Shown: piece after piece, positions 8,034 through 61,814 of the stretch
Numbering within the stretch: the stretch's first letter is position 1
How the letters are laid out: each line of letters starts with the position of its first letter
From: Alloascoidea africana
Lineage: Eukaryota; Ascomycota; Alloascoideomycetes; Alloascoideales; Alloascoideaceae
NCBI GenBank assembly: GCA_030581615.1
Contig: JAKTTT010000017.1
Span: forward strand, 186,001 to 250,000
DNA: 64,000 nucleotides
Reading direction: 5' to 3'
The notes under the pieces: generated by a model
Seen by the model: the letters and a program-made list of their open reading frames with translations, nothing else
The model's database searches: none
Told to the model about the DNA's origin: nothing
Translations under genes and position numbers: made by a program

Positions 8034-9648
8034 ATGACCACGTCAAGAGGATATACCGTAAGCATAAGCTTATTATAAAGATGTTGATAAAAAAGAAAAA
8101 AAAATGGATCATCAAGTTTGCTAAATTGTATATATCAAGGATGCGATTGATGCACTGAATTCACTCCAGTCCAATTTTGCAACCGTTGAAGCGGTTAGAA
8201 AATCGGGAAACCGAAAGAATGTCATGGCACTTGATGAAATGAAGGAATGGATTCGAAGAATGGGGTACAAAGTGAGTGTTTTTTTGTTTTTTTTTAATTG
8301 GTACGAAAGAGTCATTATCTAACTGCTGTTTTTTTAGGGAACTGACTTTGATAAGCTCAACATTATTCATGTCACAGGAACAAAAGGCAAAGGTTCTACC
8401 TGTGCTTTTACACATTCTATTCTTTCTCAATACCAACCCCAAATCTCGAAAATTGGTCTTTTCACTTCACCCCATTTAAAGTCTGTTCGGGAGAGAATTG
8501 GTATAAGTGGGAAGCCGATATCTGAAGAGAAGTTTGCATCCTATTTTTTCCAAGTCTGGGATAAACTCTCTTCCACTCAATCCGATCTCGATGAATTCCC
8601 CCTGTTAGTGGAAGGAGTTAAACCTGCTTATTTCAAATACTTAACGCTCATGTCTTTCCATGTGTTTCTTAACGAAGGAGTCGACACTGCAATCTACGAA
8701 GTCGGAGTTGGGGGAGAACTTGATTCAACAAATGTAATCGTGCATCCTACAACAACCGGTGTTTCTGCGTTAGGTATCGATCACACGTTTATGCTTGGTA
8801 ACACGTTAACTGAGATTGCATGGAACAAGGCTGGAATTTTCAAAAAGGGATCCAAAGCATTCAGTGTTCCACAGCCAGATGAGGGCAAGGCCGAATTAGA
8901 AAAGCGTGCGAAGGAGAAAGAAGTGGTATTGGAATTTGTCTCCGAAAAGACCAAACAATTGGAAGGATTGGACCTTGGTTTGAAGGGAGACTTTCAAAAA
9001 TCAAATGCTTCTCTTGCTATTGCTCTGTCTTTGGAACATTTGCACAAGCTGAATGTTGATGTTGGTGCAATGTCGTCATCATCTGAACTTCCGGAAAAGT
9101 TTATAACTGGGTTAAAAGATGCGAATTGGCCTGGAAGATGTCAAAAAATACAAGAGAATCAAATTACTTGGTATATAGATGGAGCCCATACCAAGGAAAG
9201 CATAAATGCTTCCTCTACATGGTTTAAAAAGGAAGCTATCAAATCCAAATCCGGAAACAAGAGATCCCGCATCCTCCTGTTTAATCAACAATCTAGAGAT
9301 GCAAATGCCCTTGTCAGCGAAATGTTCAAAACATTGAGTCCTGAAGTGGCCTTTGATGAGGCTTTATTCACGACCAATGTAACATGGTCCTCCGGTGCAT
9401 ATCAAGCAGACCTTGTCTCCTTAAACACATCAAAAGAACAGGTTGATGAACTTGTTGTTCAAAAGAATCTTGCTGAAGCTTGGAAGAATCTAAATGAAAA
9501 TAGCAAATCGCATGTATTTAGAGACATTGAGAGTGCTGTTGCTCATGTAAGAGAGTTGGCATCTAAAGAAGAAAAAGGAGTCGATGTTTTTATTACTGGT
9601 AGCTTGCATCTCGTTGGAGGAGTGCTTGTTGTTCTCGATGGCAAATGA
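8034..9648 (+). CDS. MET7: Folylpolyglutamate synthase (Met7/FPGS)
   Basis: Adds glutamates to folates, needed for methionine synthesis and mitochondrial one-carbon metabolism. Three exons: 8034-8057, 8140-8271 and 8338-9648, 488 aa. Intron 1 (8058-8139) begins GTAAGC. Intron 2 (8272-8337) has GTGAGT, a TCTAACT branch point and a T-rich acceptor. The spliced start reads RGYTDAIDALNSLQSNFA, close to yeast Met7. The Mur-ligase ATP loop VTGTKGKGSTC, LFTSPHLKSVRERI and the central YEVGVGGELDSTN are all present. The first coding exon is only eight codons, too short for an obvious mitochondrial signal, so the mitochondrial form (if any) may start elsewhere. Confidence 0.95.
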
Positions 9649-10560
9649 TGGTGGTATCTTGATTTTTGTTTGATATAGCATATTGTAGAGTGATAGAGAG
9701 CTAGATTTCATTGATCAAATCTTACTTACTTAGCTTAGCGGCATATTATATTGGTCTTGTTAACATCAAACTTGCTTTTTGTTGTAGAGAGCCAATATAG
9801 AAAGCTCTAATCAACAAACGGTATATTGAATAAGCGCCACCATTTTCAGATTAGAACCACATGATTGCAAGGATCTGGATGCGTGTCAATCTCCCCATTA
9901 TAACAAGTCGGTGCAAACCGTGATTGAAGTTCTGGTACATGAAAAACACGTTCTATAGCATTCCGTGCTTCTAAGTATAGAGACCAAACAGAGCGTGGGG
10001 GGAGATCAACCACACGAATACGGTGACAAGTTTGTGTTTAACGGTGATGATTCCAAAAGTCAGGAATCAAGGCGCGTATGAGAAGATTCAATATGAAACC
10101 AAACATCTCCTTCGAATTCTGACATTCCCTTTTTGTTCCGTGCTGCATCCTCTGACCCATGTACCGACCTGAAGAAGGAACAATTAATTCCTATTCTGCT
10201 AGCTTGCATGTGAATGGTGAGCGACAAATGTAGACATGTATCAAGTGTCAACTTCTTCTCTACTGCCTGAAAAGCAAGGGGCGCGAGCAAAATCGCATCT
10301 ATAAAAACACTGACTCCGCCTTTTAAATCCTGTTTCTCTTTTCCCGTTCATATCTGCTGCTTTTATTGTCCTCATTTTTCAACACCTTTTATTCTTTTCT
10401 ATAACACAGGCAGGGCCTTGGTTACCATCTACTTACACTAGCCGAAAAAGAAAAGCGCTTTCGAAGTCAAAAACTTATCTACCGATATAAACGCAAATCT
10501 AGAAAAAAAAATCTCAATCTACTTTCGTTTCAAACATTAAAAAACAAATATCTATTCAAT
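9649..10560. other. Intergenic: MET7 3' flank and precursor-gene promoter
   Basis: About 0.9 kb with no gene seen. The right half has a TATA element and a C/T-rich leader in front of the secreted-precursor gene. Confidence 0.55.
10300..10306 (+). promoter_or_regulatory. TATAAAA box of the secreted-precursor gene
   Basis: Consensus TATA element about 260 bp upstream of the ATG at 10561, followed by pyrimidine-rich DNA. TATA promoters are typical of strongly regulated genes, in line with a secreted peptide. Confidence 0.45.
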
Positions 10561-11037
10561 ATGAAATTTTCGCAAATTACAGTTGTTCTATTTGCCGCTT
10601 TGTCCATTGCTTCACCCATCCCAAAAGATCTCTCCAGTGAAGCTTTAGTCGTTGATCTTGGCACAAGAGATGCTAAAGACTTCTCAAGTGGTGTCAAACT
10701 CGATTTCGACAAGAGAGAGGCTACCAAAGACTATTCTAGCGGCGTTAAGTTGGATTTTGAGAAAAGAGAAGCCGATCCTAAGAGGGTATCTAAGGGTTTT
10801 GTCATCAACGTCGGTAAAAGAGATGCTGACGCTGACGCCGACGCCGCTGCTGCCAACCGTGTTGGTGGACTCCATGTTGGAAAAAGGGACGCCAAAAATG
10901 TTGCAGGCGGCTTCTCCATTGGGAAGCGAGAAGCTGAACCTGAAGCCAAGAATGTAGCCGGTGGTTTCTCCATTGGCAAAAGAGACCCCGAAGCAAAGAA
11001 CATTGCCGGTGGTTTCAGACTTGGCGGTAAGCGTTAA
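10561..11037 (+). CDS. Secreted multi-peptide precursor with Kex2 and Ste13-type processing sites
   Basis: 158 aa, one exon. Residues 1-18 form a signal peptide (hydrophobic LFAALSIAS, then P). The rest is seven degenerate repeats, nearly all ending in Lys-Arg (51-52, 68-69, 74-75, 86-87, 108-109, 122-123, 140-141 and the C-terminal 157-158). After most of these come acidic-Ala/Pro dipeptides (EA, DA, EAEPEA, DPEA, DADADADA), the classic Ste13 dipeptidyl-aminopeptidase substrate. Predicted mature cores: two SSGVKLDF types, VSKGFVINVG, NRVGGLHVG, KNVAGGFSIG twice, and KNIAGGFRLGG. The layout is that of alpha-pheromone precursors and of fungal repeat-containing Kex2-processed proteins. No core matches an alpha-factor I know, so whether it is a pheromone or another peptide is open. 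Confidence 0.85.
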   Translation: MKFSQITVVLFAALSIASPIPKDLSSEALVVDLGTRDAKDFSSGVKLDFDKREATKDYSSGVKLDFEKREADPKRVSKGFVINVGKRDADADADAAAANRVGGLHVGKRDAKNVAGGFSIGKREAEPEAKNVAGGFSIGKRDPEAKNIAGGFRLGGKR

Positions 11038-14000
11038 AAACAGTTTCAAAAAATAATTCAGCTAGCGCTTTCAAAATCAAGTTGTGGGGACGCTGAACTA
11101 AACACTTCCCGGAAAACATTTGAATACGCCATTCTTTTTTAAAAACAAAAGATAAGACTCCAAAAGTCTTTACACTACTCCTAACTTAATCGAGACTATC
11201 CTTTTGAGTTGATCCATTTTGTCCTATTCTGTTTTTTTTAAAATTGATTTTAGCATATGTAAATCTAGCCTTCCTCTTATGGTTGGTCTTTGTCATCTAT
11301 TTATGTGCTTCATTTTGTGTAGCTATAATATGGCTATTGGAAGTTTGAATTTTCTACTATTTCCAAAACTGAAGATAATTCTACCATACATCAAGCAAAA
11401 GAAATTGGCAATAATGAAAAATCGAGTTCTTAATCGGGCTCCTTTTTGTTGCCAGCTTTCTTGTTTTTTTTTTTTTTTCTTTTTCACAACGTTTCTTTTT
11501 GCATTTCATGCCCTTGTCATGCTACTATTGCATTGGAGCTCTTTGAGCATCCTCCCTCTCATTAACGAACTTGGATTTTTTAGTCTATCTCTTAGCATTA
11601 ATTAAACTTGTTACTCACTTAGTTTGTCCTGTTGAGGCTGTGAAAAAAGAGAAGTAAGATGATTGGGAAGGAAACATGAGAATGGCCTTTCGTTTAAACG
11701 ACAAGGTGGTATTGATGCATATAAGACGTATTTTGGATTAATATAGTTTTTTAGTTCTTTAGCCAGTTCTCTTTTGTACTAATTATCTGTTGTTTTTGTT
11801 GGTCTTTACATAATGAATGGCGTGCAAACAGAACAAAATATCAAACCCATTTACGTTAATCGACCACTGAAACCAATTCACATGAGTAGAGAAGAATATT
11901 GAAAACGCAAAGTTGTTGCACGATATTTCAACATCACCTGTCCCGTATCGTGTTTATATGGTGCTAATAATCAAACTCGTGTGTTTATCCGATAGCTGAA
12001 TGTGATTGATACATAGAACTGTTCCTCAAGACGTTAACTAGGAAAGATGGGCTCTTTCAAAATAAATAGATACCAAACTCACCACAACTAAAACTTGAGA
12101 GCACAGGGAAATAAAAAGATAACATAAAAAGCCAAGTTAAAAAACGGGAAATAGCTTCCAGTTCACTATGGACATCTGCCTATCAAGTATTCAGAAAATT
12201 ATGTCATAGCTTCTCATGGTCTATACAATCACACATCCATCTTTATAGCACAGATTCCCACTCTTTTAGATGCAGTTTCTAGAGCAATAATGGGTGTATA
12301 AATTTGAGTCTCATAATTTACCTCATATGATGAATACAGGGAGAGTTTGATCATTTGGTTTCATAGACCACAATTCATTAAGTATTTACATAAACCAAGC
12401 AGAAAGCTGAGTGTTGCAATGATGGTCGCTTTACAAATAAATGTATAATTAAATTTGAATAGTATGATATGACAGAGAATGCTAAGATCCTTTTAGATTC
12501 AGTTTACAATGCCTATTAGTCGGTCTTTCCGACATTATGCTCAAAATCAAATGCGCTGCTATAATCTCGGAGTAATCATGAATTGAGATCATAAGGCTCT
12601 GATTATAAAAAAACTACCAAATTAATTCTTTTTAACCTTTATACCTGAGGCCATCGCATGGATTAGAAGAACCGTCCGAAATCGAAACGCAAAATATCGT
12701 TAGACATGCCAAAAAAAAGAAAACTTGCTTTGTTGAAGACATACCTTTTGGGGATTTGTCTCAGCATGACGAAGAAACGGCTTTACTTTATTTTTTTTGG
12801 TTGATGCCTAACCCAGTAAACCATTATGGAAACAAAATGACCCTCACATCTTGAACAATAACGGGAAAGGAAATAATAGCATACGTATTTCATTTTAATC
12901 ATCGATTACAGTAAATGCAGACCACATATATTAGAGAGCGCATCAAACATTCATTTCCTTTGTGATTGCAATTTTCAAACTAGCTGAGCTGGAGAAAACT
13001 GCCAACGCTTACCATTTGAGATTTTAGATTGCGGCATATTCATGCGACATAAGCGGCGGATCGACTTGGCGTCCTTGCTGTACCATTGATCCAACTCCTA
13101 ATGATCAATGTTTCTATAGCGTCATCAACAAGCAGCTCTCGTTATCGGCAGTGAGGGTACTAACTGTGGCTTCATCTAATTGATGATCTACCATTTGACC
13201 CTGTTGGATTCATGGTAAGACAACTGCAAACGGGCCAAAACACCATTAGGAAAATTAACTTTAAAAAGAAGTGTCCTAGCGATCAATGTCGAAGAAGTCA
13301 AATTCATCTATCCTATCTAAATGTCTGAAAGATTCCAAATCTTTCCAACTTGAATCTTGAAACTACAAGAAGCATGGTACAGTGATTTCGTAGAGTTCAC
13401 ACGCTGCTGCTGACCCCAATAATTCGATTTGATACCGTCTAGCCAGCGACTCGCCAAAGGAAAAGGCGATGTTGTATACACACACTAAATGAGCCTGCAA
13501 AGAACAAATTGTTCTTAAACGTAACCAAATGAAACCTAGCATTTGGTATACAGTTTACTGCGTTTCTACATTCTACGATTTAGATGCTTTTCCGTTCCTT
13601 TTTTAACTTTAATTCACCTCAAGATCTGTTATCAATAGCACCGTAAACGAATAATGGATCAACTTTGAACATTGCCTTTCTATCCTTTTACATGCTTCCC
13701 TCTATATTTAGTATCAAGCCATTCATTCCAGTACTAAAATGATGATCGTATCTGTATGATCGCATAAACGTAATCAAGAAGTAGAAACAAACTGCCATCT
13801 ACAGGCATGCGAATTCCTCGGAAAAAGATGCCCACAGAATGTGCAAGTCACAGCACTATAGATTACTGAACTGGTATAATTATAAATAAAAGAAAAATAT
13901 GGTCAGGAACCGCAATAACATAAGATAGGAAAAACGGTTTCTCACACAATCATACTAGTATGATGGTCACTGGTATCACAGATTGGTCAAGGAGAAACTT

Positions 14001-14604
14001 TTACCCCCTTCTATGCATTCTTGTGTCAGAAATTGCCCATCATCATTGTCCTTACCGTACTTTGACTCTCCGCCCCACAAAAAACTTACTATGTAAAGCC
14101 TAAGTGTGACTGGCTATGCATAGGTCTCAGTTCTATCCCCATCGCCTTCAACACACAGAGCTGTCAGCTCTAAAGCGTAGAAAAATAGGGAAGTAGGAAT
14201 ACACGTAGCAATGATAAAGAAACAAAAACTGCCCTGATTCATATATTTTATTAGTTATTTAGCAACTATCCTATATGTTGACAAACAGAAGCATAGAAAA
14301 TAGAAGATGCTCAACAATTATTGATAACACGCCTTGCTCTTTTAGAAGAAAAAAACAACAGGAAAACTTTAAAAAAAATACCAACAAGCAGAATCATACA
14401 CTCAGCAACAGCAATAATCAAAAATGTAGTTGGAGTAGCAATAGGGCAAACTATTAACTAAAACGGTCTTTACTCTCAATCAATCAATCGATCCACCAGT
14501 AATCTCTCTTCTTTAAAAAATGATCAAAACTTTCCTCATGAGACCTCTCAAGTTCAACTTGTAGAAAAATCAAACAGTCAAAGTCTTTAATTGTTTAAAC
14601 AGCT
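11038..14604. other. 3.5 kb gene-poor region
   Basis: No supported gene on either strand. The longest open frame (11219-11605, plus) is a low-complexity F/L-rich translation of T-rich DNA and looks like chance. Except near the ends the region lacks the long poly(A/T) runs seen between other genes. It could hold non-coding RNA or distal regulatory DNA for the precursor gene, but I see no recognisable element. Confidence 0.5.
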
Positions 14605-15781
14605 TTATATGCTCAGAAGACTCTTTTGAAATTTCCAATATGGCGCGCGTATTGGGTCGTACGTCTTTTCCAGCATCTCCAAAGCTCGTAATGATTTCTT
14701 GGGGTTTGTTTTTGCATAGATCATAGATAGCGTTTCGAGAGCGTGAGAGGATGTAACCTGGGAGGTTTCCGTTATGTAAAATCTTCTCCTTGCCATATCC
14801 TCATAATCATCTTCGTCATCATCATCCTCATTACCATATCGATTTCTAACATTTGTAACTGAACCTTGTTTATGTCGGAAGATATGTTTTTGTCCCTTGT
14901 CATCACTATCCGTGCCCTTTGATGAGATATCCGCATATTTTGTACAAAAATCTGACAACTCTGCCAATGGCCTCCCAGTCTTTTTATATATGCCTAGCAA
15001 GTAGTTCCAAGGACTTGGATTCTGGGGTGCCAAATCGATTGCATTCTCTGCAAATTCTATCTCAGAGTCCAAAATCTTTTTCTTTTCCTCTTCTGAAATA
15101 GTACCCTGTCCAATATTACCGTCTCCAGCTAAATATGCTAGCTCGCCGAAAAGTGCAAAGAAACGGTGGTTCCAAGCACTATTATTTCTTACATCAAATT
15201 TGATCAATGCCTCTGTAAACCTCATCTCACGGATGCCCCATAATTGGAAAGTTCGGACGAGCCACTGTCTATATGTCCAGACATGGTAATTTTTGTTATC
15301 CTCTTCGATCATAGCTTCTATCAAGGGGAACTCTCTTTCAGGCGAGGGAGCGCCAGGAAGGGTGAGTATCCTCTGTCTGTAGTTCCAGATCTGGTAGTTT
15401 TTTGTCTTTTCTAGGGCAACCTCCTCTACCCAGTCGAGCTCCTTCGCCAGGTCTAGATTTAGAGCCTTTACAATGTCGAATCTATAGCACCAGACAGTAT
15501 AGTGAGCCGCGTTCATTCCGATTATGAAAGAAGTCAAGCTCAGAGCACGCTCTGAAAACTCTTTCTTTGCCATGAGAGCGCGAAGGAGGCCCGTTGCGGT
15601 TTCGTACTCCTTTGTGTAGGCAATTCTGCAGAGCTGTTCGCCAGACTCGTCTTGAGGAATCGGCGTAAGATCGTTCCAGTTATATTTTTCAAGGGCAGAC
15701 TTTAAACAGACAAGACGGCAAATGTTAGCATCCACCACATATAGCTCTGCACCTGGAGCACCAATCTCTTCTACTCACCAT
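14605..15781 (-). CDS. RAM2: Protein farnesyltransferase / GGTase-I alpha subunit
   Basis: Shared alpha subunit of farnesyltransferase and geranylgeranyltransferase I, which prenylate CaaX proteins. Coding exons are 15781-15779 (only ATG) and 15699-14605, 365 aa. The intron (15700-15778, 79 bp) starts GTGAGT directly after ATG, has a TGCTAAC branch point and ends AAAG. Splicing gives MSALEKYNWNDLTPIPQDE, which aligns with the yeast Ram2 start. PFTA repeats are clear: YTVWCYR, YQIWNYRQ, YHVWTYRQW, NSAWNHRFF and SPWNYLLG. An acidic insertion (EDDDDEDDYED) lies near residue 300. The unspliced frame could start in the intron (GTG at 15738), but that segment contains the branch point and has no family match. 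Confidence 0.93.
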
Positions 15782-16085: not shown

Positions 16086-16825
16086 TCACGGGGTGCTCTT
16101 GGATATTATGTAATTATCGACGAACTGCTGACGTAACACCGTAGCCACCAAAACATCTCCATCGTGTGAGATGGACAGCAGAAACTCTTCATCTGGGGAC
16201 CCCGTTTCTCCAAGACCTGGGGGCGTCGCGCTTTGGCTGACCGCGTATCCCACATTTGGCTTTCCTACATGTTTGCGGGACGCGGTTCTCTGATTAGCAC
16301 GCGAGAAAAAAGTGTTCGCTGCTGCTAGAAGACCAAAAGGAACATACCATTTTCATCTTTCCATTTGTACCAATCTTTAAAGGTAAATCCAGACTGCCTT
16401 TCCGGATCTAAAGTTTTGAACACAGCTTCCTTCGATGCCCAACTTCCTGCTAAATAGGTTGCCAGCTTCAACTCCAGCGTCTGGAGCGATTTGTCGTTCG
16501 TGTTCCTGGTGTTTCTTAAGCTCCAATTCCAATTCCAATTCCAGTTTGACATCGAAAGCCAATTCGGTTTGTGTCTTTCGACTGTCGATGAGCTGTGAGG
16601 CTGGTTTCCAACAGGATTACCAGTGGCTGAGTGTGCTTTTGCAATTGTATCATATTCTTCCAGGTAGGTCTCGAATAGTACCATCTCTCGGTCTGGATTC
16701 AGAATCCTCTTTGCAAATCTACGCGTATATCGTCTTGGCTTGGTAGCAATTAATTGAGTGAAACGAGATATACGGACAACGTCTACCCCAATCGATCTCA
16801 CGATTGGAATCCTTTGCGTTTGCAT
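16086..16825 (-). CDS. PPT2: Mitochondrial phosphopantetheinyl transferase (holo-ACP synthase)
   Basis: Transfers 4'-phosphopantetheine from CoA to mitochondrial acyl carrier protein, needed for lipoate and type II fatty-acid synthesis. Exons 16825-16348 and 16264-16086 give 218 aa. The intron (16265-16347, 83 bp) has GTATGT, GCTAAT and ATGTAG, and restores the reading DENGKPNVGY. Motifs: GVDVVRISRF with the metal-binding Asp, WASKEAVFKTL (the WxxKEAxxK signature) and SISHDGDVLVATVL near the C-terminus. Odd point: a run of Asn-Trp pairs (NWNWNWNW) near residue 95, encoded by an AATTCC repeat, sits in a variable loop before the signature. It shares orientation with RAM2 and ERG12. Confidence 0.9.
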
Positions 16826-17223: not shown

Positions 17224-18795
17224 TTACCAAAACTTCCAGTTGTGAGTTTCACATCCTAGAGCAGAAGCAATCTCTTCTTTATCAGTGTAGTTAAGAAATC
17301 TATCCAACGAAAAGATATCATCAACTTTTGCATCCACATCTTTAGCGATATCGCTAGCCGTAAGCAACCCAACTCCTTTTCCACCAAGAGTGGTATTGAA
17401 AACCTCAAATCCATATGCTTTGTCCATCCTTTGAGCAAAATCTTGAATCTGCTCTTCGGTGGTATCCTCATTCAAAATGGTAATGGCACAGCCACCACCG
17501 CCGGCACCTGTCAACTTTGTGGCGCCAATCTGCAACTCGTCCGCAATTACCTTGATCTTTTCTAAGGTAGGGTGCGAAACGCCAATGGAAACCAACAAGC
17601 CGTGATTCACCCTAACCAGAGTACGTATCTGATCCCGAGCAGCTTGGTCAAAGTTTGGATGAATCATGAGATTGTAGGCGTCTTTTGCAACATGCTCCAT
17701 CGAGTCTAGAAGATATGAGCTCGTCACCGGTAAAGTTGCATTCAGTTGGGCGACACCAGCCACAAGGTCTGCAGTTCGTCTCGGATGCTTTGTGTTTGTA
17801 AGTAAAAGCTGTAAAGGAGGAAAGTTCCTCATGGAGGTTCGCACATTAGGAACACCAGTACCAACTCTTTGGAAAATCACAGCTCCTCCATGGCTCGCAA
17901 CGGCGTTATCGATTCCGCTTGGATTCCCATGGATACACTTCTCTCCAACAAAAGCCCAAGCGTCAATGAGATCGACATCGTGTGTTTCGGAGATATTTGT
18001 CGGGTCGGACTTGCCAGTTGAAGCCGCGGATATGTGTCCGTTAAGAAGCAGTAGTGCCGCACTTAGACAAACGGATATAGCAGCTGAAGAGCCTAGCCCC
18101 GCCCCTATTGGGAGCGTAGATCGTAGAGAAAAGGTGAGACCTTTTACTTTTGGAACTCCATTCTTATCCTTCGTTGATAGAGAGAGATAAAGGTAAAGGA
18201 ATGCAAATGCAGCAACGTATTGAAATGAGGATGAAATGTGTGCAAGGTGTTTCTGAAGTCCATCAACCACTTCAGGGATCAACTCTTTATCCTTCAGATC
18301 TTGCATTTGCTCTGGAGATGGTAATTTCATTTGCTCTAATAGGTCCCAGGGAAGATCTTTTACATGCCATGTTTGCTTAAAATCAATGTCTGGGAACTCT
18401 AGTGAGATGGCATCCGACTCCAAACCCGACTCCGACCCCGAGCCCGACTCACTCGAGGGCGTTATAAGAAGATAGGTCCGGAGCGAAAGAGCAGCTGCGA
18501 TTGCAGGCTTTAAAAAAATGTTAGAAACCAAACAATTGGATAATTAAAATTTACCAAATCGTTTGATAAAATCAAAAAGCTGATCCGCGATCAAGAATTT
18601 GAAGGGCAGCCAATTGCCAACATTTTGTTTCGATTCCAGTTTCGAACTACTACACCTTCTTTGAAACTCTCAACCCAACACAATGAACAAGACAATGGCA
18701 GAACATACCTTCCCATACACGGCGGAATGCTCGCCAAAGAGAATTACCTTGCCCGGCGCAGAGAGCAAAAACGAGTCACCAAGATTCAAACTCAT
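17224..18795 (-). CDS. ERG12: Mevalonate kinase
   Basis: GHMP kinase that phosphorylates mevalonate in the sterol/isoprenoid pathway; cytosolic. Exons 18795-18709 and 18507-17224 give 456 aa, close to the yeast length of 443. The intron (18508-18708, 201 bp, long for this window) has GTATGT, TTCTAACA and AAAG, and splits the motif GEHSAVYGKPAIA. Other GHMP motifs: LPIGAGLGSSAAISV (ATP-binding loop) and KLTGAGGGGCAI near the C-terminus. A Ser/Glu/Gly stretch (SSESGSGSESG) around residues 55-65 is lineage-specific. It diverges from YTM1 with about 250 bp between start codons. Confidence 0.95.
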
Positions 18796-19043: not shown

Positions 19044-20447
19044 ATGGGGGACGAGAATTTACAGGTGAAAGTCCGATTTGTAACGCGGGACACAGATCCG
19101 GAGCTACAAGTTTCAGATGCCCCTCTCCTTGTACCCGCTTCTTTAAAGAGATATGGGCTCTCAGAGGTTCTGAACCAGCTGATACAAAACAGAGAAGACA
19201 GTGAGGGAAACGAAGATAATGAGAGGAAGCCTGTTCCATTCGATTTTCTAGTTGATGGAGTTGTGCTTCGTTCGTCAATTCAAGATTACCTAACGCAAAA
19301 TGGCCTTTCTCGAGAACATTTTATGACTCTTGAGTATACAAGAAGTGTGCTACCACCATCTTTCCTTGCGAGCTTTACTGATGAAGATTGGGTTTCCTCT
19401 GTGGAATGCTGGGATGGCAAAAAGATTATTTCTGGAGGATATGATGGCGTTGTCAGAATATGGAACGAATCTTGTAAAGTTGAGGTGCAATGTGTAGGGC
19501 ATCTGGGTGCGATTAAGGATACATGTTGGATCAATGGGACCCGCGTGGTTAGCGCTGGAAACGATAGACAGATTCGACTTTGGAAAGCGTCATCGGGAGA
19601 AAAAGAGAACGATAAAGTGATTGAGGGCACAACTGTGGCTATTTTACAGGGTCATAAGGCCCCAGTAGTTTCTCTCGATGTGAATGCTGTTTCTAACAGA
19701 ATCCTTTCTGCAAGTGCAGACCACACTGTAGGATTCTGGTCTACAAACCACAAGGAGATGGATGCTGTGGATCCAATTGCAAGTAGCGAGTCCCAGCTAA
19801 GTTCCACAGCATCACAAAAGAGACGGAAAATCGCGATTCAGGACGGCACGATACGAAGACGAGCACCACTTTCCTTTCTTGAGTCGCATTCACAACCTGT
19901 GAGCGAGGTCATTTTTGCACCCAATGATAATACAGTTGCTTACTCTGTATCTCTAGACCATACGATAAAAACATGGGATCTGGTTACTGCAAAAGTGGTA
20001 GATACGAAAAAGACACAGTATTCTTTGCTTTCCGTATTGGCCCTCCCAGAACTGAACCTTCTCGCTTGCGGATCATCCGCGAGACACATTACTCTCCATG
20101 ATCCACGTGCCAACTCTACACAATCAACATTAAACGAGTCTGCAAATAGTCGAGTATCACAGGGCCAACTCAATGGCCATCGGAATTTTGTTGTTGCGTT
20201 GGCAAAGAGTCCAGATAGCGATTACGTCTTTGCAAGTGCTTCCCACGATAGCACTGTTCGTGTATGGGATATTCGAGCGGAAAAGAGTCTTTTTGTCATT
20301 AAACGAGAAACTACAGGCTTATCAACATACGATAACAAAGTTTTTGATGTTTGTTGGGATTCCAAGTTTGGTATTGTGAGTGCAGGCCAAGATAAGAAGA
20401 TACAGATAAATAGAGGAAGCGAGTTAATGCCATTAAAGGAGCGATAA
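19044..20447 (+). CDS. YTM1: Ribosome biogenesis WD-repeat protein Ytm1/WDR12
   Basis: Member of the Nop7-Erb1-Ytm1 (PeBoW) complex needed for 27S pre-rRNA processing and 60S assembly in the nucleolus. 467 aa in one exon (yeast 460). An N-terminal NLE/ubiquitin-like domain (about residues 8-90, VKVRFVTRD to FDFLVDGVVL) binds the Rea1 MIDAS domain in the family. About seven WD repeats follow (GGYDGVVRIW, SAGNDRQIRLW, SASADHTVGFW, SLDHTIKTWD, SASHDSTVRVWDIR). Its stop lies 28 bp from the stop of the convergent downstream gene. Confidence 0.95.
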   Translation: MGDENLQVKVRFVTRDTDPELQVSDAPLLVPASLKRYGLSEVLNQLIQNREDSEGNEDNERKPVPFDFLVDGVVLRSSIQDYLTQNGLSREHFMTLEYTRSVLPPSFLASFTDEDWVSSVECWDGKKIISGGYDGVVRIWNESCKVEVQCVGHLGAIKDTCWINGTRVVSAGNDRQIRLWKASSGEKENDKVIEGTTVAILQGHKAPVVSLDVNAVSNRILSASADHTVGFWSTNHKEMDAVDPIASSESQLSSTASQKRRKIAIQDGTIRRRAPLSFLESHSQPVSEVIFAPNDNTVAYSVSLDHTIKTWDLVTAKVVDTKKTQYSLLSVLALPELNLLACGSSARHITLHDPRANSTQSTLNESANSRVSQGQLNGHRNFVVALAKSPDSDYVFASASHDSTVRVWDIRAEKSLFVIKRETTGLSTYDNKVFDVCWDSKFGIVSAGQDKKIQINRGSELMPLKER

Positions 20448-26013: not shown

Positions 26014-29000
26014 ATGACCATTCCAAGTATCAGACATCTACTGATTGGAGTGGATGTGGGCGGTACAAATACAGACTCTGTTTTAATCGATCCAAATGGA
26101 ATTCATGCTCCAAATAGAGGCATATTGGCTTTCAACAAATCTGTAACCACTCCGGACGTAAGTGAGGGTATAGAGAGTGCGATCGCGGCTTTATTCGACC
26201 AGCCAAATACCATAGTCACATCTTTAAACGAAAACTCTTGTTCAACTCCACCGATAATCAACAAGTCTGATATAGCAGCAGTCACGATCGGAACCACACA
26301 CTTTATTAATGCGGTAGTGGAAAGAGATAGAGCCCGACTGGAAAAAGTTGCTGTGATCAGACTATGTGGTCCCTATTCCCATTCAACACCTCCCTTTTCT
26401 GATTTCCCTACCGGACTAACTCGTATCCTTAACGGATACACTGCATTTGTGGATGGTGGACACAGAGTTGACGGCTGCGAAATACGATCACTGGATGAAT
26501 CGAAAATAAGAGAACATGCGGAAATCATAAAGAAGATGGGGATCAATGCGATTGTGGTGAACGGTAACTTTGCCCCAATGAAACCAGATCACGAAGTAAG
26601 AGCTGCTGAGATATTGAAAAGCGTGATTCCAAATGCAAGAATAGTGCAAACACACCAGGTTTCGGGTATTGGGTTCCTCGAGCGGGAGAATGCCTCGATT
26701 TTAAACGCCGCTGTTATGAGGTTCTCGGTCAAAATCATTCGCTCTTTTAAAGCTGCTATTAGGAGACAGGGACTATCCTGTCCCGTTTTACTGACGAAAA
26801 ACGATGGTACGGTTTTAAGTGCAAGCGATGCTATGAAAACGCCCATCACAACTTTTTCATCCGGCGCTACAAACTCCATGAGGGGTGCAAGATTCCTCAC
26901 CTCTAAAGAGTTTGCTCAGTCTGGCAAGGGCAACTCAATGATCGTTGTGGATGTGGGAGGTACCACCACTGATGTTGGAGTTTTACTGCCATCGGGATTA
27001 CCTAGACAGTCATCATCTTACTCCGTGGTTGGTGGTGTCAGAGTCAACTTTTCCATGCCCCAGGTTGAGAGTATCGGTTTAGGAGGAGGAACCATAATCA
27101 GAAGAGGCCAAGAAAAAGACGCTGTTGTTAAAATTGGTCCAGACTCAACAGGCTGTAACATTATAAAAGATAGCATTGTTTTCGGAGGAAAGGTGGACAC
27201 TGCAACCGATGTAGTCATTGCTAAAGCTTTACAAGAAAAAAGATTCAGAACTGAAATGCATCAAATCGGAAACCCTGAATTGGTTAAGGATAAATACCCA
27301 ATTGACTATATCTGCAGTTTTGCAACAGAGTTAAAGTCCAAAGTTGAACGAGTAATTGACAGAATGAAAACTTCGCCTGATCCTATACCTGTTTTACTTG
27401 TGGGAGGAGGATCATTTATCATTCCAGAAGAGTTGGCACCGGCATCAACAGTGATCCGACCTCCATATTTTAGTGTAGCGAATGCAATTGGCGCAGCAAC
27501 TGGTAAGATTTCAGCAGAATGTTCATTGATCAAGCTCATATCAGAGAAATCTGCGAAAGATAAAGCGTTACAAGATTTGAAAAATGAAGCAATTGATAAA
27601 GCAATTGCAAAAGGTGCAAAAGCAGGCACAATAGACTTTGTTGATATTTCAGTCGAGGAAATTCCCTATGTACCCGATACCTACTCATTTGCCGTCAAAG
27701 TCGTTGGTGAGGTTGACTATGCTAGAGTCCAAGATATTTTCTCAAAAGAATCGGCTTTGTTTTCAGCAGGTGAAGGTGAAGATGAGGATGAAGATTTGGA
27801 TTATTCGACATCTGGTGGGACCATAGCGAAAAATTCAATATTTGGGGATTCTGCCATGTTGGAAATGAACCATGAAAATGAGATTAAGGAAGAGATGATG
27901 ACCAAAGAGGACAAGCCTTCAAAGTATAAACCTTTTATCAACAGTAACAAAGAGTGGATTCTTTCAGAAACAGATATCAAGTTTGTTGCAACTGGCGCTT
28001 ACATTTTAGGCTGTGGTGGCGGTGGCTCACCTTATAGCACATATCTCGATCTTCGACACATGATACGAAACAACGATGAAATCAAAGTGATCAATCTTCC
28101 TGATATTAAGCTTGAGGATGGTGACCAAGGCCAGATATGTCCAATTGGGTATACAGGTTCTCCAACGGTATCCTTGGAGCAACTTAATGGAACCGAACTT
28201 ATGGATGCTTTTAGGATGTTGGAGAAACATGCAAATATAAACTCTTCGGCCGTGATGCCTTTTGAAATTGGGGGTTCAAATGGATTACAAGGATTTTTTG
28301 TGGGTTCCTCGTCTAATTTAAACCTCCCTGTGGTGGATTGCGATCTCATGGGACGTGCCTATCCTACAACTTGGCAATCGCTTCCTGTTGTGTACTCTAA
28401 TGATCGCTGCATTTATACCCCATCTTCTTTCAGTGATGGGAACGATAACACACTGGTGATAGCCAAAGCACAAAACGATGTGATGGTGGAGAAGATCACA
28501 AGAACAGCATTGGTTGAACTGGGTTCCTGGGTCGGTGAAGTAGATGCGCCTCTGACCCTTGAGCAGATAAAGACCATGTCAGTGCAAAATTCTATATCAT
28601 TGGCATGGAGAATAGGCAGAGCAGTTGCCATTGCGAATGAAAAGTCTGAACAGAATTTGCTTCCAGAGAGAATAATAGAAGCAGTTGGTGGACATGGCTC
28701 TGCAAAACACATTTTTTCTGGGAAAATCATCAGCATTGAGAGGAAACTGTACCATGGCCATGTGTATGGAGAAGTTACGATTGAGGATCCAGACACAAGA
28801 CGACAGATGCATATACCGTTTAAGAATGAAAACATTGCAGCAAAGATTCGGGATCAACCGGATCAAGAAGCCAGAGTTGTTTGTTCTGTACCCGATCTAA
28901 TTGCTGTTATCGATGAGGATACCGGTGAGGCGATAGGAACACCCGAATATAGATACGGAATCATGGTCTTTGTACTCGCGATTGCACCTTCTGATAAATG

Positions 29001-29145
29001 GACCAAAACGGAAAAGGCACTTGAAATTGGAGGACCAAAATCATTTGGACCCCCTTTTGATCAGATAAATTATGTTCCTATTGGCAAGTTTTCGGAACCG
29101 GTTAGCGTCATTGAGGAGTATTATGAACCACACTCTGACTCGTAG
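26014..29145 (+). CDS. Hydantoinase/oxoprolinase fused to DUF917
   Basis: 1043 aa, one exon. Residues about 8-210 are Hydantoinase_A_N (LLIGVDVGGTNTDSVLID, then VTIGTTHFINAV). About 225-520 is Hydantoinase_A with the actin-like ATP site (IVVDVGGTTTDVGVLLPSG; ESIGLGGGTIIRRG). An acidic linker follows (EGEDEDEDLDYS), then a DUF917 domain from about 650 (FVATGAYILGCGGGGSPYS). The ASKHA fold suggests ATP-dependent opening of a cyclic amide; the natural substrate in fungi is not known to me. Bacterial relatives often encode the two parts as separate adjacent genes, whereas fungi have this fusion. The start codon is the first ATG after a poly(T) leader. Confidence 0.9.
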   Translation: MTIPSIRHLLIGVDVGGTNTDSVLIDPNGIHAPNRGILAFNKSVTTPDVSEGIESAIAALFDQPNTIVTSLNENSCSTPPIINKSDIAAVTIGTTHFINAVVERDRARLEKVAVIRLCGPYSHSTPPFSDFPTGLTRILNGYTAFVDGGHRVDGCEIRSLDESKIREHAEIIKKMGINAIVVNGNFAPMKPDHEVRAAEILKSVIPNARIVQTHQVSGIGFLERENASILNAAVMRFSVKIIRSFKAAIRRQGLSCPVLLTKNDGTVLSASDAMKTPITTFSSGATNSMRGARFLTSKEFAQSGKGNSMIVVDVGGTTTDVGVLLPSGLPRQSSSYSVVGGVRVNFSMPQVESIGLGGGTIIRRGQEKDAVVKIGPDSTGCNIIKDSIVFGGKVDTATDVVIAKALQEKRFRTEMHQIGNPELVKDKYPIDYICSFATELKSKVERVIDRMKTSPDPIPVLLVGGGSFIIPEELAPASTVIRPPYFSVANAIGAATGKISAECSLIKLISEKSAKDKALQDLKNEAIDKAIAKGAKAGTIDFVDISVEEIPYVPDTYSFAVKVVGEVDYARVQDIFSKESALFSAGEGEDEDEDLDYSTSGGTIAKNSIFGDSAMLEMNHENEIKEEMMTKEDKPSKYKPFINSNKEWILSETDIKFVATGAYILGCGGGGSPYSTYLDLRHMIRNNDEIKVINLPDIKLEDGDQGQICPIGYTGSPTVSLEQLNGTELMDAFRMLEKHANINSSAVMPFEIGGSNGLQGFFVGSSSNLNLPVVDCDLMGRAYPTTWQSLPVVYSNDRCIYTPSSFSDGNDNTLVIAKAQNDVMVEKITRTALVELGSWVGEVDAPLTLEQIKTMSVQNSISLAWRIGRAVAIANEKSEQNLLPERIIEAVGGHGSAKHIFSGKIISIERKLYHGHVYGEVTIEDPDTRRQMHIPFKNENIAAKIRDQPDQEARVVCSVPDLIAVIDEDTGEAIGTPEYRYGIMVFVLAIAPSDKWTKTEKALEIGGPKSFGPPFDQINYVPIGKFSEPVSVIEEYYEPHSDS

Positions 29146-38763: not shown

Positions 38764-39719
38764 TTATGGGTGGTTATCTCCTTTGGTTAAAGGACTGTTT
38801 TTGGCTCCAGATGAGGCGAGTTTGTCAGCTTCGTCATTTCCCTTGCAACCAGAGTGGCCCTTCACGTAATCCAACACAATTTCTGGCAACCCGTGAAACG
38901 TGTAAACGGCGTTAATCCAGTCAATATCGGATAATATTTTAAGAATCAAGTCTTTGTGCTTTATATCGTCCCCTGTGATTCCTTTAAATCCATTTCTCAT
39001 CCATATTCTGCTCCAGACAGTCAAAGAATTGATCGAATATTGTGAATCAGACAAAATGACGTAGTGTTTCAATGATGACACTGTGCATGATTTTGGTTTT
39101 CCGGTAATCATTTTAGTCCCTTCTAATTGCAGTTCTTTTTTTATCAACTCGATAGCCTTGGCTATCGCGGTGAGTTCAGCCAGGGGAGTGGTCTGAATGT
39201 AGCCTTCAAGATGTGTGGAGATGTTGCGTTTATCTTTAGGACCAAAGTAGACCCCATATCCAGCTATTGGATGTTTTAGTCCCTTTCTAAGAGTTGATCC
39301 ATCTGTATACACTATAGCACTCTTTGCCCCATATTTAGACCTAATGGTGGAATCAAACGATTCAGTTTTTCGAGGAACAATAACGGCTTTTGGTGTACAG
39401 GTAGTCGAATCTTGTCCCGAAGCCTTATCTTTCTTTAGGATCTTTTTACGTAAAGCTTTAGTAAGTTGAGTTCCCGGAGCATAAAACTCAAATGCTTCTT
39501 CAACTGTTTCAAAGCTTCTGAAAACTGCTTTTGAGAATCCGTGCACTTGGTCTTTGCACTCGTCCCATTGTGTGTAGACTCCTGGAATCCTCCCTATTGA
39601 TGCACATTTTAGGCTTGATCCCTAACGGCGAAACACAAAATAAGCTTACCTTTCCTCACAGCATAGAACTTTTCGGAATTGATGCCAAAGGTACTAAAAT
39701 GCCTGACTCCACCGATCAT
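38764..39719 (-). CDS. RNH1: Ribonuclease H1
   Basis: Cuts RNA in RNA-DNA hybrids in the nucleus and mitochondria. Exons 39719-39650 and 39593-38764 give 299 aa. The 56-bp intron (39594-39649; GTAAGC donor, ATAG acceptor) restores KFYAVRKG + RIPGVYTQWDECK, the hybrid-binding domain (about residues 18-60) that starts RNase H1 proteins. The catalytic domain has all four acidic residues: YTDGS, PLAELTAIAKAI, ILSDSQYS and KGNDEADKLA. The spacer between domains is about 60 residues and Lys-rich. The first 15 residues (MIGGVRHFSTFG) could be a weak mitochondrial signal. Divergent from MRP2, 231 bp apart. Confidence 0.95.
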
Positions 39720-55705: not shown

Positions 55706-56305
55706 CTAATGATGACGATGATGATTTTTATTGTGTATCATTTTGATCACTTGTTTCAAAACCATTTTTTTCTCTCTTTCATCTCGATTCATTTCAATTC
55801 CATCTTTTCTTTTCCTCTGTGTTTGTGGAAAACTGGTCCAATTTTTGTGTTTAACACAACGTCTTGGATTACAAACATAATTTATTGTAATTGGGATTGA
55901 ACAACAGGCAAGTACAATCCAGGCTGTTGTCAATGGAATCAAATTTAGCATTGCAAATGTAAACATCAAAACCACGATGAAGTTGAGCAATTGAATTGGG
56001 CCATCATGATTTCGTAAAAACCTAAATATTTTATTTTGGCGAATTGTTTGAATCAGTTTGATACAAAATTGATATAGATTAGATGGTAAGATTTGTTTCA
56101 TCAACAAACTGAATTGATCAAATTGTGTATTTTCAAATCGTTTATCACGTTTGAGATCTTTTTCAAGTTTTTGAAAACAACGGATCAAATCCCTTTTCAT
56201 TTTTGAAGATTCAAAAGTGTATTCATAATTTTGTATTTGAATAAGAATATCGAGAAGTTGGTTTTGTGATTTATCGCCAGTGGCAGTAGTGGTTTTGAAT
56301 ATCAT
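55706..56305 (-). CDS. Hypothetical protein with a hydrophobic hairpin
   Basis: 199 aa, not recognised. A charged N-terminal half (QKLEKDLKRDKRFENTQFDQ) looks helical. Two adjacent hydrophobic segments follow near residues 105-145 (LLNFIVVLMFTFAMLNLIPL, TAWIVLACCSIPITINYVC), then a basic tail rich in Lys/Arg/His ending in a His run. The close pair of long hydrophobic segments resembles an ER hairpin as in reticulon-like or Pex30-type proteins, but no motif proves this. The ATG is preceded by an AT-rich leader. The frame is well above chance length for its base composition. Confidence 0.6.
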   Translation of the reverse strand: MIFKTTTATGDKSQNQLLDILIQIQNYEYTFESSKMKRDLIRCFQKLEKDLKRDKRFENTQFDQFSLLMKQILPSNLYQFCIKLIQTIRQNKIFRFLRNHDGPIQLLNFIVVLMFTFAMLNLIPLTTAWIVLACCSIPITINYVCNPRRCVKHKNWTSFPQTQRKRKDGIEMNRDEREKKMVLKQVIKMIHNKNHHRHH

Positions 56306-56687
56306 CTTGTTTGTTTATCTTAATTATTATTTTATTAACTTTTTTCCAAAGAATTAGTTCACAAGAAAGCTAAGCTATGATGAATATATATTTGTTTTTT
56401 TTTTTATATAGCAAAGAAAAGGTGGAGGAGATGAAGATGTTTTTTTTTGTTTTTCTTGGAAGTTAGATCCAAACAACCACAAAAAGGGGACATAAACAAG
56501 TGGAGGAGGGATTAGAAACATTAAGGTTCGGATACAAGAGCACGCGATTCATTAATCAAAAAAAGAGGAAGAAACCCATGAGGACTGATGAAAGGGTATA
56601 ATACCAAACAATAAGGGGGACATAAACGGGCTGATGCTAATGTACCGATCCAGCAGAAAGTCGTAATGAAGGAGAGGTTGAAATTAT
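56306..56687. other. Intergenic gap between two minus-strand genes
   Basis: About 380 bp: promoter side of the hypothetical membrane protein and 3' flank of RIM9, with poly(T) tracts. No gene seen. Confidence 0.6.
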
Positions 56688-58355
56688 TTATCTGGGACCA
56701 CCATTAGAACCAATGCGTCTTGGACCACGAGGACCAGAGGTTCTAGGAATTGCAAAATCAGGGTTTGAGTTGAGCAAAGCCTGGTGATTCATCGGTGAAT
56801 TTCTATGTTGCTGTGCGGCGGCTGGGTTATAGTTTTCTTGTGGTCGCGGACCCAGTCTTGAGGAATTTGAATTTGAATTTGAATTGTTTGAGTATGAACG
56901 ATGGGCCGTGCTGCCACTGGAAGAGCTCGTGGAGTAGGAGATCCGATTGGGGGGTCTTTCTCCCGGAACAGGACTCGATCGCACGTAATTGAGGTGATTT
57001 GCATTTGAGTTTGCGTATCTGGGGCTCATTGGACGTGGAGAATCGTCTTGAATCACCTCGTCTGCGAGCCTCTGGAGCTGGGGCTTCAACGGGACCTCGA
57101 CCTCAGTGTTAGCGCCCGTTGGAGGTTGAGGTTGAGTCTGTGCCCTGTCCTGGTTATAGTTATGGTTATAGTTATGGTTATGGTTATGGTTATAGATATA
57201 ACCGGGCCCTGGCCCTGGCCCTGGACCTGGACCTGGACCTGGACTTGGTCCCGTACCTGGCACCCTGCCTGGACGCTGGGGCAGAGTTGCAAACGAGTGA
57301 GGCGGCATTGCGGCCATCCGGGCTGGTTGGACTCCGGGAGCCAGCACTGGAGGAAGGGCCGGGGTGATTTGGTCGGGGGCCGGGGGTCGAGGGACCGGTT
57401 TGGCCTGGGGCCTTGGCTTTGCGATGGCCGGCGGATAGTGGACCTGGGGCGTGTTTGTGCGGTCCGTGGTGATCGTCATGGCATCGTACGAGCGGTGGTT
57501 TGCGAGCTGCTGCTCGTTCTGGTTCTGCTGGTTCTGTTGGTTCTGGTGATACTGGCTCGCGGGCAGCCGGGGCAGCGTCGTGAAGGTGGCCAGCGGGCCC
57601 TTGGGCTTGGAGTCGTAGGCCTGGTCCAACACCCCCAGGTTCTTGGAGCTGAGCTCCAGCACGGGCGGCGCCAGGTTCAGGTCCAGCCGGATGTCGTCGA
57701 CCTCGCGGATCGCAAGCCTCGCGGCCGCGGCCGCGGCCAGGGCGAGCAGACTCGCGACCACGGCGCCGAGGACGAGCCACGAGCCAAAGGCCAGATGGGG
57801 CAGAAACAGCAGCGTGTCGGCCACAAAGGCGAGCACTGCCAGAGCGGCCGCGGCCAGCCCCAGCGTCAGCAGCCAGTTGAGCACGCGGCGGCGGGCCGGG
57901 GCAGACGAGCCGTCGTCGTAGTTGTCGACGGCAGGCTCGCCGTACTCGTCCTTGCCGTCCACGCTGGAGGAGCGGTTGCGGCTTCTTCGACTTTTCAGGC
58001 TGCTGACGACGAGTGCGGCGGCCGAGGCCACGAACAGCACCAGACTGAGTCCCGCGGCCAGGGGGTGCACGATCAGCAGCTTCGCGACCCTGGAGCGGGC
58101 CGTGTAGGACAGGCTCCAGCGACCCTGGTCGTTTTGCACGTCCGCGGCACGGTACACGGCCTGGGCGGACGAACAGAGTCTTCTTGAGTTTGAGTTCGAG
58201 CTACAATAGCCAAACACGCCGTAGTCCACGGCGCCCAGCGAGGCGAGCCGGAACGGCCTGACGACAGGCACCGAGATCGTCGCCACGAGCAGTAGCCCCA
58301 TGGCCACGAACGAGAGCACGCACACGGCAGCCAGCCAGAGCCTGTGGTGTGCCAT
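56688..58355 (-). CDS. RIM9: Rim9/PalI-type membrane sensor of the alkaline pH pathway
   Basis: Four-span plasma-membrane protein of the SUR7/PalI family that assists Rim21/PalH in ambient-pH signalling to Rim101/PacC. 555 aa. TM1 is at about residues 7-29 (LSFVAMGLLLVATISVPVV). A loop with the paired-cysteine GYC...C motif follows, then TM2 at about 95-117, TM3 at 158-182 and TM4 at 188-212. The remaining 340 residues are a cytosolic Pro/Gln/Asn/Ser tail with a PG-repeat and an HN/YN-repeat from microsatellites at 57152-57249. The membrane part is very GC-rich, the tail less so. Family length is variable because of the tail. Divergent from RidA, about 150 bp apart. Confidence 0.82.
   Translation of the reverse strand: MAHHRLWLAAVCVLSFVAMGLLLVATISVPVVRPFRLASLGAVDYGVFGYCSSNSNSRRLCSSAQAVYRAADVQNDQGRWSLSYTARSRVAKLLIVHPLAAGLSLVLFVASAAALVVSSLKSRRSRNRSSSVDGKDEYGEPAVDNYDDGSSAPARRRVLNWLLTLGLAAAALAVLAFVADTLLFLPHLAFGSWLVLGAVVASLLALAAAAAARLAIREVDDIRLDLNLAPPVLELSSKNLGVLDQAYDSKPKGPLATFTTLPRLPASQYHQNQQNQQNQNEQQLANHRSYDAMTITTDRTNTPQVHYPPAIAKPRPQAKPVPRPPAPDQITPALPPVLAPGVQPARMAAMPPHSFATLPQRPGRVPGTGPSPGPGPGPGPGPGPGYIYNHNHNHNYNHNYNQDRAQTQPQPPTGANTEVEVPLKPQLQRLADEVIQDDSPRPMSPRYANSNANHLNYVRSSPVPGERPPNRISYSTSSSSGSTAHRSYSNNSNSNSNSSRLGPRPQENYNPAAAQQHRNSPMNHQALLNSNPDFAIPRTSGPRGPRRIGSNGGPR
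57152..57249 (+). repeat. GGTTAT and GGCCCT/GGACCT hexamer repeats in the RIM9 tail
   Basis: Two adjoining hexamer arrays, about 57152-57198 (TTATGG type) and 57203-57249 (CCTGGC/CCTGGA type). On the coding strand they specify His/Tyr-Asn and Pro-Gly repeats. Confidence 0.85.
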
Positions 58356-58505
58356 GCCTACGGAAACGAGAGAAAACGAGGGCTATTGTTGGAATTGCAC
58401 AGGGGGCTTTCCAGGAGTTTTGCAGCCCTATTGTTCTGCAAGAGAGAGAGGGGGGTTACCCGGAGCGTGTTTTGATGCTGATCCCCCAAAATCCAGTCAC
58501 AATTG

Positions 58506-58922: not shown

Positions 58923-58949
58923 TTTATCATATGTAATTCAATTCAGTGT

Positions 58950-60356: not shown

Positions 60357-60518
60357 CGAAGCGTATCTTGTGGCTGCCAAAAGTGCCAAATGTTGGAGTT
60401 TTCCAAGGGTGGATGGACCCCCAGACACCCAGACACCCCTCGTCCTCCACCTCCTCTGGCCGCATCCAAAAAGCCCAGCCCGGCTGTTTTGTGCCCGCCA
60501 CGCCTCTTCGCCAACGCC

Positions 60519-61651: not shown

Positions 61652-61814
61652 TGAATGTCTTTGCATTGTTGAGTAGTGACTTATTTAGTGGATATAGGTG
61701 TTTCCTATGGTGAAATAGTTAACCTTGTGAAAATCAACAACATTTTCCTCCTCCCCCCTGTAAAACTCTCCTTTTCTCCTTCCTCCTTCCTCATCTCCAC
61801 AGCATCCTATAATA

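What the first reader, a model, noticed from the sequence alone, without database searches (positions are those of the whole stretch)
10561..11037. Undescribed-looking secreted precursor releasing three families of short peptides
One frame combines a signal peptide, seven repeats ending in Lys-Arg and varied Ste13-type spacers (EA, DA, EAEPEA, DPEA, DADADADA). The cores drift from SSGVKLDF (N-terminal two) through VSKGFVINVG and NRVGGLHVG to KNVAGGFSIG (exactly duplicated) and KNIAGGFRLGG. All fit a loose G-hydrophobic-x-hydrophobic plan, so they look like one repeat family diversifying in place. Ordinary alpha-factor genes hold near-identical copies; this graded set looks unlike them. It could be a mating pheromone of a divergent lineage or a non-mating secreted peptide.
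Basis: partly seen in the sequence, partly recalled or inferred. Interest (0 to 1): 0.8.

Follow-up and report, generated by a model that had tools for sequence, protein, structure and literature searches.

The report
Yeast secreted multi-peptide precursor gene
This is a yeast gene for a secreted protein that looks built to be cut into seven short peptides, the way yeast mating pheromones are made, but the peptides do not look like known mating pheromones and their job is unknown.

Summary
Bases 10561-11037 (+) encode 158 residues with a signal-like N terminus, eight Lys-Arg sites and acidic X-Ala/X-Pro dipeptides after six of them, counts that 0 of 100,000 residue shuffles reach. Seven units carry peptides; predicted products are KDFSSGVKLDFD, TKDYSSGVKLDFE, VSKGFVINVG, ANRVGGLHVG, KNVAGGFSIG (twice) and KNIAGGFRLGG. 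The new result: the two KNVAGGFSIG copies differ at 6 of 30 bases and the two SSGVKLDF copies at 8 of 24, without one residue change. So these repeats look old and their peptides kept by selection. It fits the Kex2-processed repeat proteins (KEPs), with an alpha-factor-type Ste13 layout; Ytm1 in the window indicates a budding yeast. It is not shown to be an alpha-factor: no Pfam MF_alpha match, no Trp or Pro in any core, cores unlike YGEPxW of Yarrowia and Trichomonascus. KEPs are widespread, a third of surveyed ones lack homologues, and precursors with dissimilar peptides are known (Ece1). New member of a known kind. Most likely function, inferred only: linear secreted signal peptides. No eukaryote genomes were held, so relatives could not be sought.

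The parts
10561..11037 (+). Complete ORF of the Kex2-processed repeat protein (158 aa plus stop), one exon
10561..10614 (+). Signal-peptide-like N terminus, MKFSQITVVLFAALSIAS (residues 1-18; cleavage point approximate)
   Evidence: highest hydrophobicity window of the protein; cleavage site inferred by eye
10615..10674 (+). Pro-region with a probable decayed unit LVVDLG-TR-DA (residues 19-38)
   Evidence: 10644-10674 matches 10797-10827 at 71% over 31 nt; best 30-nt match 21, reached by 17 of 2000 codon shuffles of the pro-region
10675..10710 (+). Core 1, KDFSSGVKLDFD (needs cleavage after Thr-Arg and trimming of Asp-Ala on its N side)
10723..10761 (+). Core 2, TKDYSSGVKLDFE, after spacer EA
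10768..10779 (+). Spacer-only unit EADP between two KR sites
10786..10815 (+). Core 3, VSKGFVINVG, no dipeptide spacer
10822..10851 (+). Spacer DADADADAAA (five X-Ala dipeptides)
10852..10881 (+). Core 4, ANRVGGLHVG
10894..10923 (+). Core 5, KNVAGGFSIG, after spacer DA
10948..10977 (+). Core 6, KNVAGGFSIG, after spacer EAEPEA; same peptide as core 5, 6 of 30 bases different
10996..11028 (+). Core 7, KNIAGGFRLGG, after spacer DPEA; precursor ends in KR-stop
10300..10306 (+). TATA-like element about 260 bp before the ATG
   Evidence: one match where 0.78 is expected in 912 bp, so no evidence by itself

Best explanation
The gene encodes a secreted Kex2-processed repeat protein of a budding yeast. 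The precursor enters the ER; a Kex2-type protease cuts after each Lys-Arg; a Kex1-type carboxypeptidase removes Lys-Arg; a Ste13-type dipeptidyl aminopeptidase removes the acidic X-Ala/X-Pro dipeptides. This leaves linear 10-13-residue peptides of two kinds, acidic-ended (KDFSSGVKLDFD, TKDYSSGVKLDFE) and Gly-ended (ANRVGGLHVG, KNVAGGFSIG, KNIAGGFRLGG, with VSKGFVINVG as outlier). They are most likely extracellular signal peptides, the two duplicated ones held unchanged by selection. Shown: ORF, site pattern, silent-only divergence of the two main repeat pairs. Inferred: secretion, each cleavage, the signalling role.
For: ORF and sites. Site counts beyond 100,000 shuffles. After trimming of X-Ala/X-Pro dipeptides four of the five Gly-ended units have exactly 10 residues, the fifth 11. 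SSGVKLDF copies: 8 of 24 bases differ, 0 residues; KNVAGGFSIG copies: 6 of 30 bases, 0 residues. With the same number of random substitutions 0 of 20,000 and 4 of 20,000 trials keep the peptide as well. Ala codons GCT/GCC 19 of 21 against 127 of 252 in seven window ORFs, Fisher p 0.0004, compatible with high expression. No DUF3328 hit listed among 17 window ORFs scanned, so linear products are likely. Ytm1 in the window is closest to chain 6elz_p (S. cerevisiae, recalled): 510 bits against 326 for 8esq_p (S. pombe, recalled).
Against: No transcript, peptide or relative was seen. VSKGFVINVG has no spacer, core 1 has no Lys-Arg on its N side, and cores 1 and 2 start in different register (K against TK). 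The trimming rule leaves whole dipeptides by construction, so only the equal core lengths are informative. The substitution null ignores transition and codon bias, and the repeats are only 8-14 codons. GGF copies 2 and 3 show no clear constraint (3009 of 20,000 trials), nor does the pro-region copy (10,848 of 20,000). The Ala codon bias is inflated by the repeated spacers. Two unlike peptide families from one precursor are not what a single-receptor signal needs.
Confidence: 0.6

Rival explanations
1. It is the alpha-type mating pheromone precursor of a divergent yeast lineage: one core family is the Ste2 ligand, the others are relics or spacers.
For: Signal peptide, KR, and X-Ala/X-Pro spacers are the alpha-factor layout; PMC6339444 (section 8 read) states that the Ste13 signature in Ascomycota is generally only dedicated to alpha pheromones; most KEPs of Saccharomycetes were annotated as alpha-factor (PMC7329392, passages). 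One ATGAAAC, part of a pheromone-response-type motif (recalled), lies at 10093 where 0.19 is expected in 912 bp.
Against: No MF_alpha or MF_alpha_N match listed even at E 10 (HMMER's filters drop most weak matches). No Trp and no Pro in any core. Cores unlike IYGEPGW/GYGEPNW of Trichomonascus and Yarrowia (PMC13130702, passages). Two dissimilar peptide families in one precursor. No full TGAAACA and no Mcm1-type site in the 912 bp upstream (motifs recalled, their validity in this yeast assumed). The scanned neighbours are housekeeping-type genes; the nearest with any mating link is a prenyltransferase alpha subunit, which has general roles (recalled).
Confidence: 0.15
2. The peptides act at the cell surface: short amphipathic beta-strand peptides assemble on the wall, as the longer Rep1 repellents of Ustilago do.
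For: All six distinct cores contain a hydrophobic-x-hydrophobic step near the C end; alternation score 8 against a shuffle mean of 3.9, reached by 426 of 20,000 shuffles. Rep1 precedent: Kex2-released peptides form amyloid-like fibrils (PMC4617103, passages).
Against: Cores are 10-13 residues; ten of the eleven Rep1 peptides are 35-53. The alternation was tested after it had been noticed, and related cores are not independent. The structure model is uninformative (mean pLDDT 36).
Confidence: 0.15
3. The peptides act on other organisms (antimicrobial, toxin-like or host-directed), as candidalysin from Ece1 does.
For: Ece1 has the same precursor logic, seven KR motifs and eight different peptides (PMC12153327, passages); deletions of six Coprinopsis KEP genes had no apparent phenotype, which the authors read as a possible role towards the biotic environment (PMC9769878, discussion read).
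Against: The cores are short, weakly charged and mostly Gly-containing; by eye none resembles the 31-residue candidalysin. No direct evidence for it in the window.
Confidence: 0.08

Closest known systems
Kex2-processed repeat proteins (KEPs; Le Marquer 2019 PMC6339444; Umemura 2020 PMC7329392)
   Same: Signal-like N terminus, short repeats separated by Kex2 sites, most cores in the 9-24-residue class that is commonest in Dikarya
   Different: Two peptide families in one precursor; a Ste13 signature without a recognisable alpha-factor core
Ascomycete alpha-type pheromone precursors (MF-alpha)
   Same: Signal peptide, pro-region, KR plus X-Ala/X-Pro spacers, tandem cores, no cyclisation gene found among the ORFs scanned
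   Different: No Pfam match, no Trp or Pro in the cores, cores not all near-identical
Candida albicans Ece1 (candidalysin precursor)
   Same: One secreted precursor, several KR sites (seven in Ece1, eight here), dissimilar peptides
   Different: Ece1 is 271 aa and its candidalysin 31 aa; whether it has X-Ala/X-Pro spacers was not checked
Ustilago maydis Rep1/Hum3/Rsp1
   Same: Imperfect repeats between Kex2 sites
   Different: Rep1 and Hum3 repeats 31-55 aa, Rsp1 18 or 21 aa; a basidiomycete
Dikaritin/ustiloxin precursors
   Same: Signal peptide and Kex2-separated cores
   Different: No DUF3328 gene found among the ORFs scanned; cores carry no Tyr except TKDYSSGVKLDFE; DUF3328 reported absent from Saccharomycetes

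Membership tests
KEP | ER signal peptide | tested here: inconclusive
   Strong N-terminal hydrophobic stretch; SignalP not available
KEP | Repeated similar sequences separated by Kex2 sites | tested here: met
   the published detection pipelines themselves were not run
KEP | Actual Kex2 cleavage and secretion | not testable with these tools
   Needs peptidomics
Alpha-type mating pheromone precursor | KR followed by X-Ala/X-Pro dipeptides | tested here: met
   6 of 8 KR are followed by [DE][AP]; one of the other two is the C terminus
Alpha-type mating pheromone precursor | Pfam MF_alpha or MF_alpha_N match | tested here: not met
   Not listed at E up to 10 (also at 0.1)
Alpha-type mating pheromone precursor | Core with a known motif: Trp/Pro type (recalled), GQ or PG in most Leotiomycetes, YGEPxW in two yeasts | tested here: not met
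   No Trp, Pro, PG or GQ in any core
Alpha-type mating pheromone precursor | MAT-alpha-specific expression and Ste2 activation | not testable with these tools
   No transcripts; no genome held
Dikaritin/ustiloxin precursor | DUF3328 (UstYa-type) genes nearby | tested here: inconclusive
   No hit listed for 17 window ORFs scanned; further ORFs, small exons and the rest of the genome not scanned
Ece1-like | Homology to Ece1 or a candidalysin-like amphipathic helix | not tested
   No sequence comparison was run; precursor logic only

The most novel reading that the evidence does not exclude
A budding yeast uses the alpha-factor processing route for a second, non-mating peptide language: one precursor delivers two conserved, unrelated ligand families in fixed ratio (two acidic-ended, four Gly-ended and one intermediate), each possibly with its own receptor or surface role.
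Probability: 0.25. Interest if true: 0.65.

Novelty: new member of a known kind. Interest (0 to 1): 0.38.

Why it matters
Few KEPs have a known job. In Ascomycota the Ste13 signature is said to be generally reserved for mating pheromones (PMC6339444, section 8). A budding-yeast precursor with that signature but without a recognisable pheromone, whose duplicated peptides look kept by selection, is a good case to test whether yeasts use this route for something other than mating. The predicted peptides, and masses for five of the six distinct ones, are given, so the first test is simple.

Tried and rejected
Genome-wide searches were impossible: no whole genome is held. Relatives were sought in prokaryote genomes (590 pattern matches, none confirmed), viral contigs (600 pattern matches, none confirmed) and phages (none). 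None of these collections is meant to hold yeast genomes, so the negatives say little. The Pfam hit Fibrinogen_BP (27.2 bits, cut-off 50) is rejected as a match below its cut-off, probably compositional; two further matches at E 0.2 and 0.67 are taken as chance. PDB matches of the precursor (E 0.4-0.5) are noise. The AlphaFold model (mean pLDDT 36, single sequence) was not used further. Promoter motifs: no TGAAACA, no Mcm1-type site, one ATGAAAC at 10093 (0.19 expected), one TATA-like element (0.78 expected), two CCAAT (2.71 expected). The four-residue string GFRL in core 7 also occurs in the C. albicans alpha-factor (recalled); judged coincidence. CTG-Ser code: judged unlikely (CTG is 46 of 331 codons of the Leu set in eight ORFs; of five CTG codons in Ytm1, three lie at Leu, one at Val and one at Ser of the 6elz_p chain, read by eye). 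Literature searches that gave nothing nearer; supplementary tables could not be opened, and most subscription papers are not in the library.

Full report
What is there. The frame at 10561-11037 (+) is a complete ORF of 158 codons in one exon. It begins MKFSQITVVLFAALSIASPIP; the hydrophobic peak lies at residues 6-16. It then holds eight Lys-Arg pairs, the last at the very end. Six of the eight are followed by Asp/Glu and Ala/Pro. Shuffling the residues 100,000 times gave at most 7 KR and at most 3 such motifs. No other of the window's 747 stop-to-stop ORFs of at least 40 aa has more than one motif of the looser form KR[DEYVGST][AP].

Register of the spacers. I cut after each KR and removed leading dipeptides that end in Ala or Pro as far as they go. 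The spacers removed are EA; EA-DP; none; DA-DA-DA-DA-AA; DA; EA-EP-EA; DP-EA. What remains is TKDYSSGVKLDFE, nothing, VSKGFVINVG, ANRVGGLHVG, KNVAGGFSIG, KNVAGGFSIG and KNIAGGFRLGG. That whole dipeptides are removed is built into the rule. What is informative is that four of the five Gly-ended products are exactly 10 residues long and the fifth 11. The first SSGVKLDF unit lies behind Thr-Arg-Asp-Ala. It comes out as KDFSSGVKLDFD only if Thr-Arg is cut; core 2 starts one residue earlier (TKD against KD). PMC2515848 (passages) notes evidence for Kex2 processing of sites with other residues at P2, so this is possible but unsure.

The duplicated repeats look old and their peptides kept. Comparing codons of paired units: the eight codons of SSGVKLDF differ at 8 of 24 bases with no change of residue; the wider 14-codon unit at 12 of 42 bases with two conservative changes (F/Y, D/E). 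KNVAGGFSIG differs at 6 of 30 bases with no change; with its KR, 8 of 36. Placing the same number of substitutions at random gave as few residue changes in 0 (8 codons), 0 (14 codons), 4 (10 codons) and 0 (12 codons) of 20,000 trials. Copy 1 against copy 3 of the GGF family has 3 residue changes (46 of 20,000). Copy 2 against copy 3 shows no clear constraint (3009 of 20,000), nor does the pro-region copy (10,848 of 20,000). The null has no transition or codon bias, so the figures are rough; the two main pairs remain far from it.

A decayed unit. LVVDLG-TR-DA in the pro-region resembles FVINVG-KR-DA (71% over 31 nt). A codon-shuffled pro-region matches the rest as well in 17 of 2000 trials. I regard it as probable that the pro-region began as another unit.

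Surroundings. Upstream lies a folylpolyglutamate-synthase-like Mur ligase (8338-9648 +). Downstream is a gap of about 3.5 kb without an ORF over 130 residues stop to stop (not scanned by Pfam), then a protein prenyltransferase alpha subunit (14605-15774 -), a phosphopantetheinyl transferase (16325-16825 -), a mevalonate-kinase-like GHMP kinase (17224-18543 -) and Ytm1 (19044-20447 +). Seventeen window ORFs, the precursor included, were scanned by Pfam. No DUF3328 and no pheromone receptor is among the families listed (for Ytm1 the best 25 of 36 were shown). ORFs judged only by eye (a kinase at 3-2369, a RING-type protein near 33 kb, an RNase H-like fragment at 38767-39621, those at 58506-60356 and 61837-63999) were not scanned. 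Ytm1 scores 510 bits to 6elz_p, 326 to 8esq_p and 280 to 5cyk_A (S. cerevisiae, S. pombe, Chaetomium, organisms recalled). The PAPS reductase scores 352 bits to 2oq2_A and 351 to 7rge_A (both from budding yeasts, recalled). So the window is most likely from Saccharomycotina. Truncated N termini and splice-like motifs suggest introns in several genes, not demonstrated; with G+C 42% this suggests a lineage like Dipodascales. That is a guess, and the species is not identified.

Function. The machinery implied is that of alpha-factor. PMC6339444 (section 8 read) says the Ste13 signature is generally only dedicated to alpha pheromones in Ascomycota, and PMC7329392 (passages) that most KEPs in Saccharomycetes were annotated as alpha-factors. 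Against a mating role: no MF_alpha or MF_alpha_N match at E up to 10, no Trp or Pro in any core, and two unlike families. In Trichomonascus the candidate MF-alpha has twelve copies ending IYGEPGW, with GYGEPNW in Yarrowia (PMC13130702, passages). A Ste13 pattern outside known mating use has been seen in mushrooms, where KEP peptides are detected and some look Ste13-trimmed although their role is unknown (PMC9769878, abstract and discussion). I therefore put linear secreted signal peptides first, alpha-pheromone at 0.15 and surface-active beta peptides at 0.15. The alternation of hydrophobic residues (score 8, mean 3.9, 426 of 20,000 shuffles) is suggestive but was tested after the fact. Codon choice at Ala (19 of 21 GCT/GCC against 127 of 252) fits strong expression but is inflated by the repeated spacers.

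Novelty. One survey counts 7878 KEPs, 2560 of them without homologues (PMC7329392, abstract passage). Different peptides from one precursor are known from Ece1 (PMC12153327, passages), and imperfect Kex2-separated repeats from Rep1 and Hum3 (PMC4617103, passages). Six core fragments gave no paper in 5.39 million, but supplementary tables, where KEP lists sit, could not be searched. It is a new member of a known kind, of moderate interest because its duplicated peptides look selected and none looks like a known pheromone.

Noticed in passing
window 38767-39621 (-): Open frame with an RNase H-like sequence, perhaps the remnant of a LINE-type retroelement; identified by eye only.
   Followed up: no
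window 26014-29145 (+): 1043-aa ORF that joins hydantoinase/oxoprolinase domains to S-Me-THD-like N- and C-terminal domains.
   Followed up: partly
window 56001-62000: Sharp rise of G+C (0.51-0.62) over the SUR7/PalI-like gene and the genes after it, against 0.34-0.45 in the other 2-kb steps except the first two (0.50, 0.48).
   Followed up: no
window 11038-14604: About 3.5 kb beside the precursor without an ORF over 130 residues stop to stop; may hold regulatory or non-coding sequence, or small exons.
   Followed up: no
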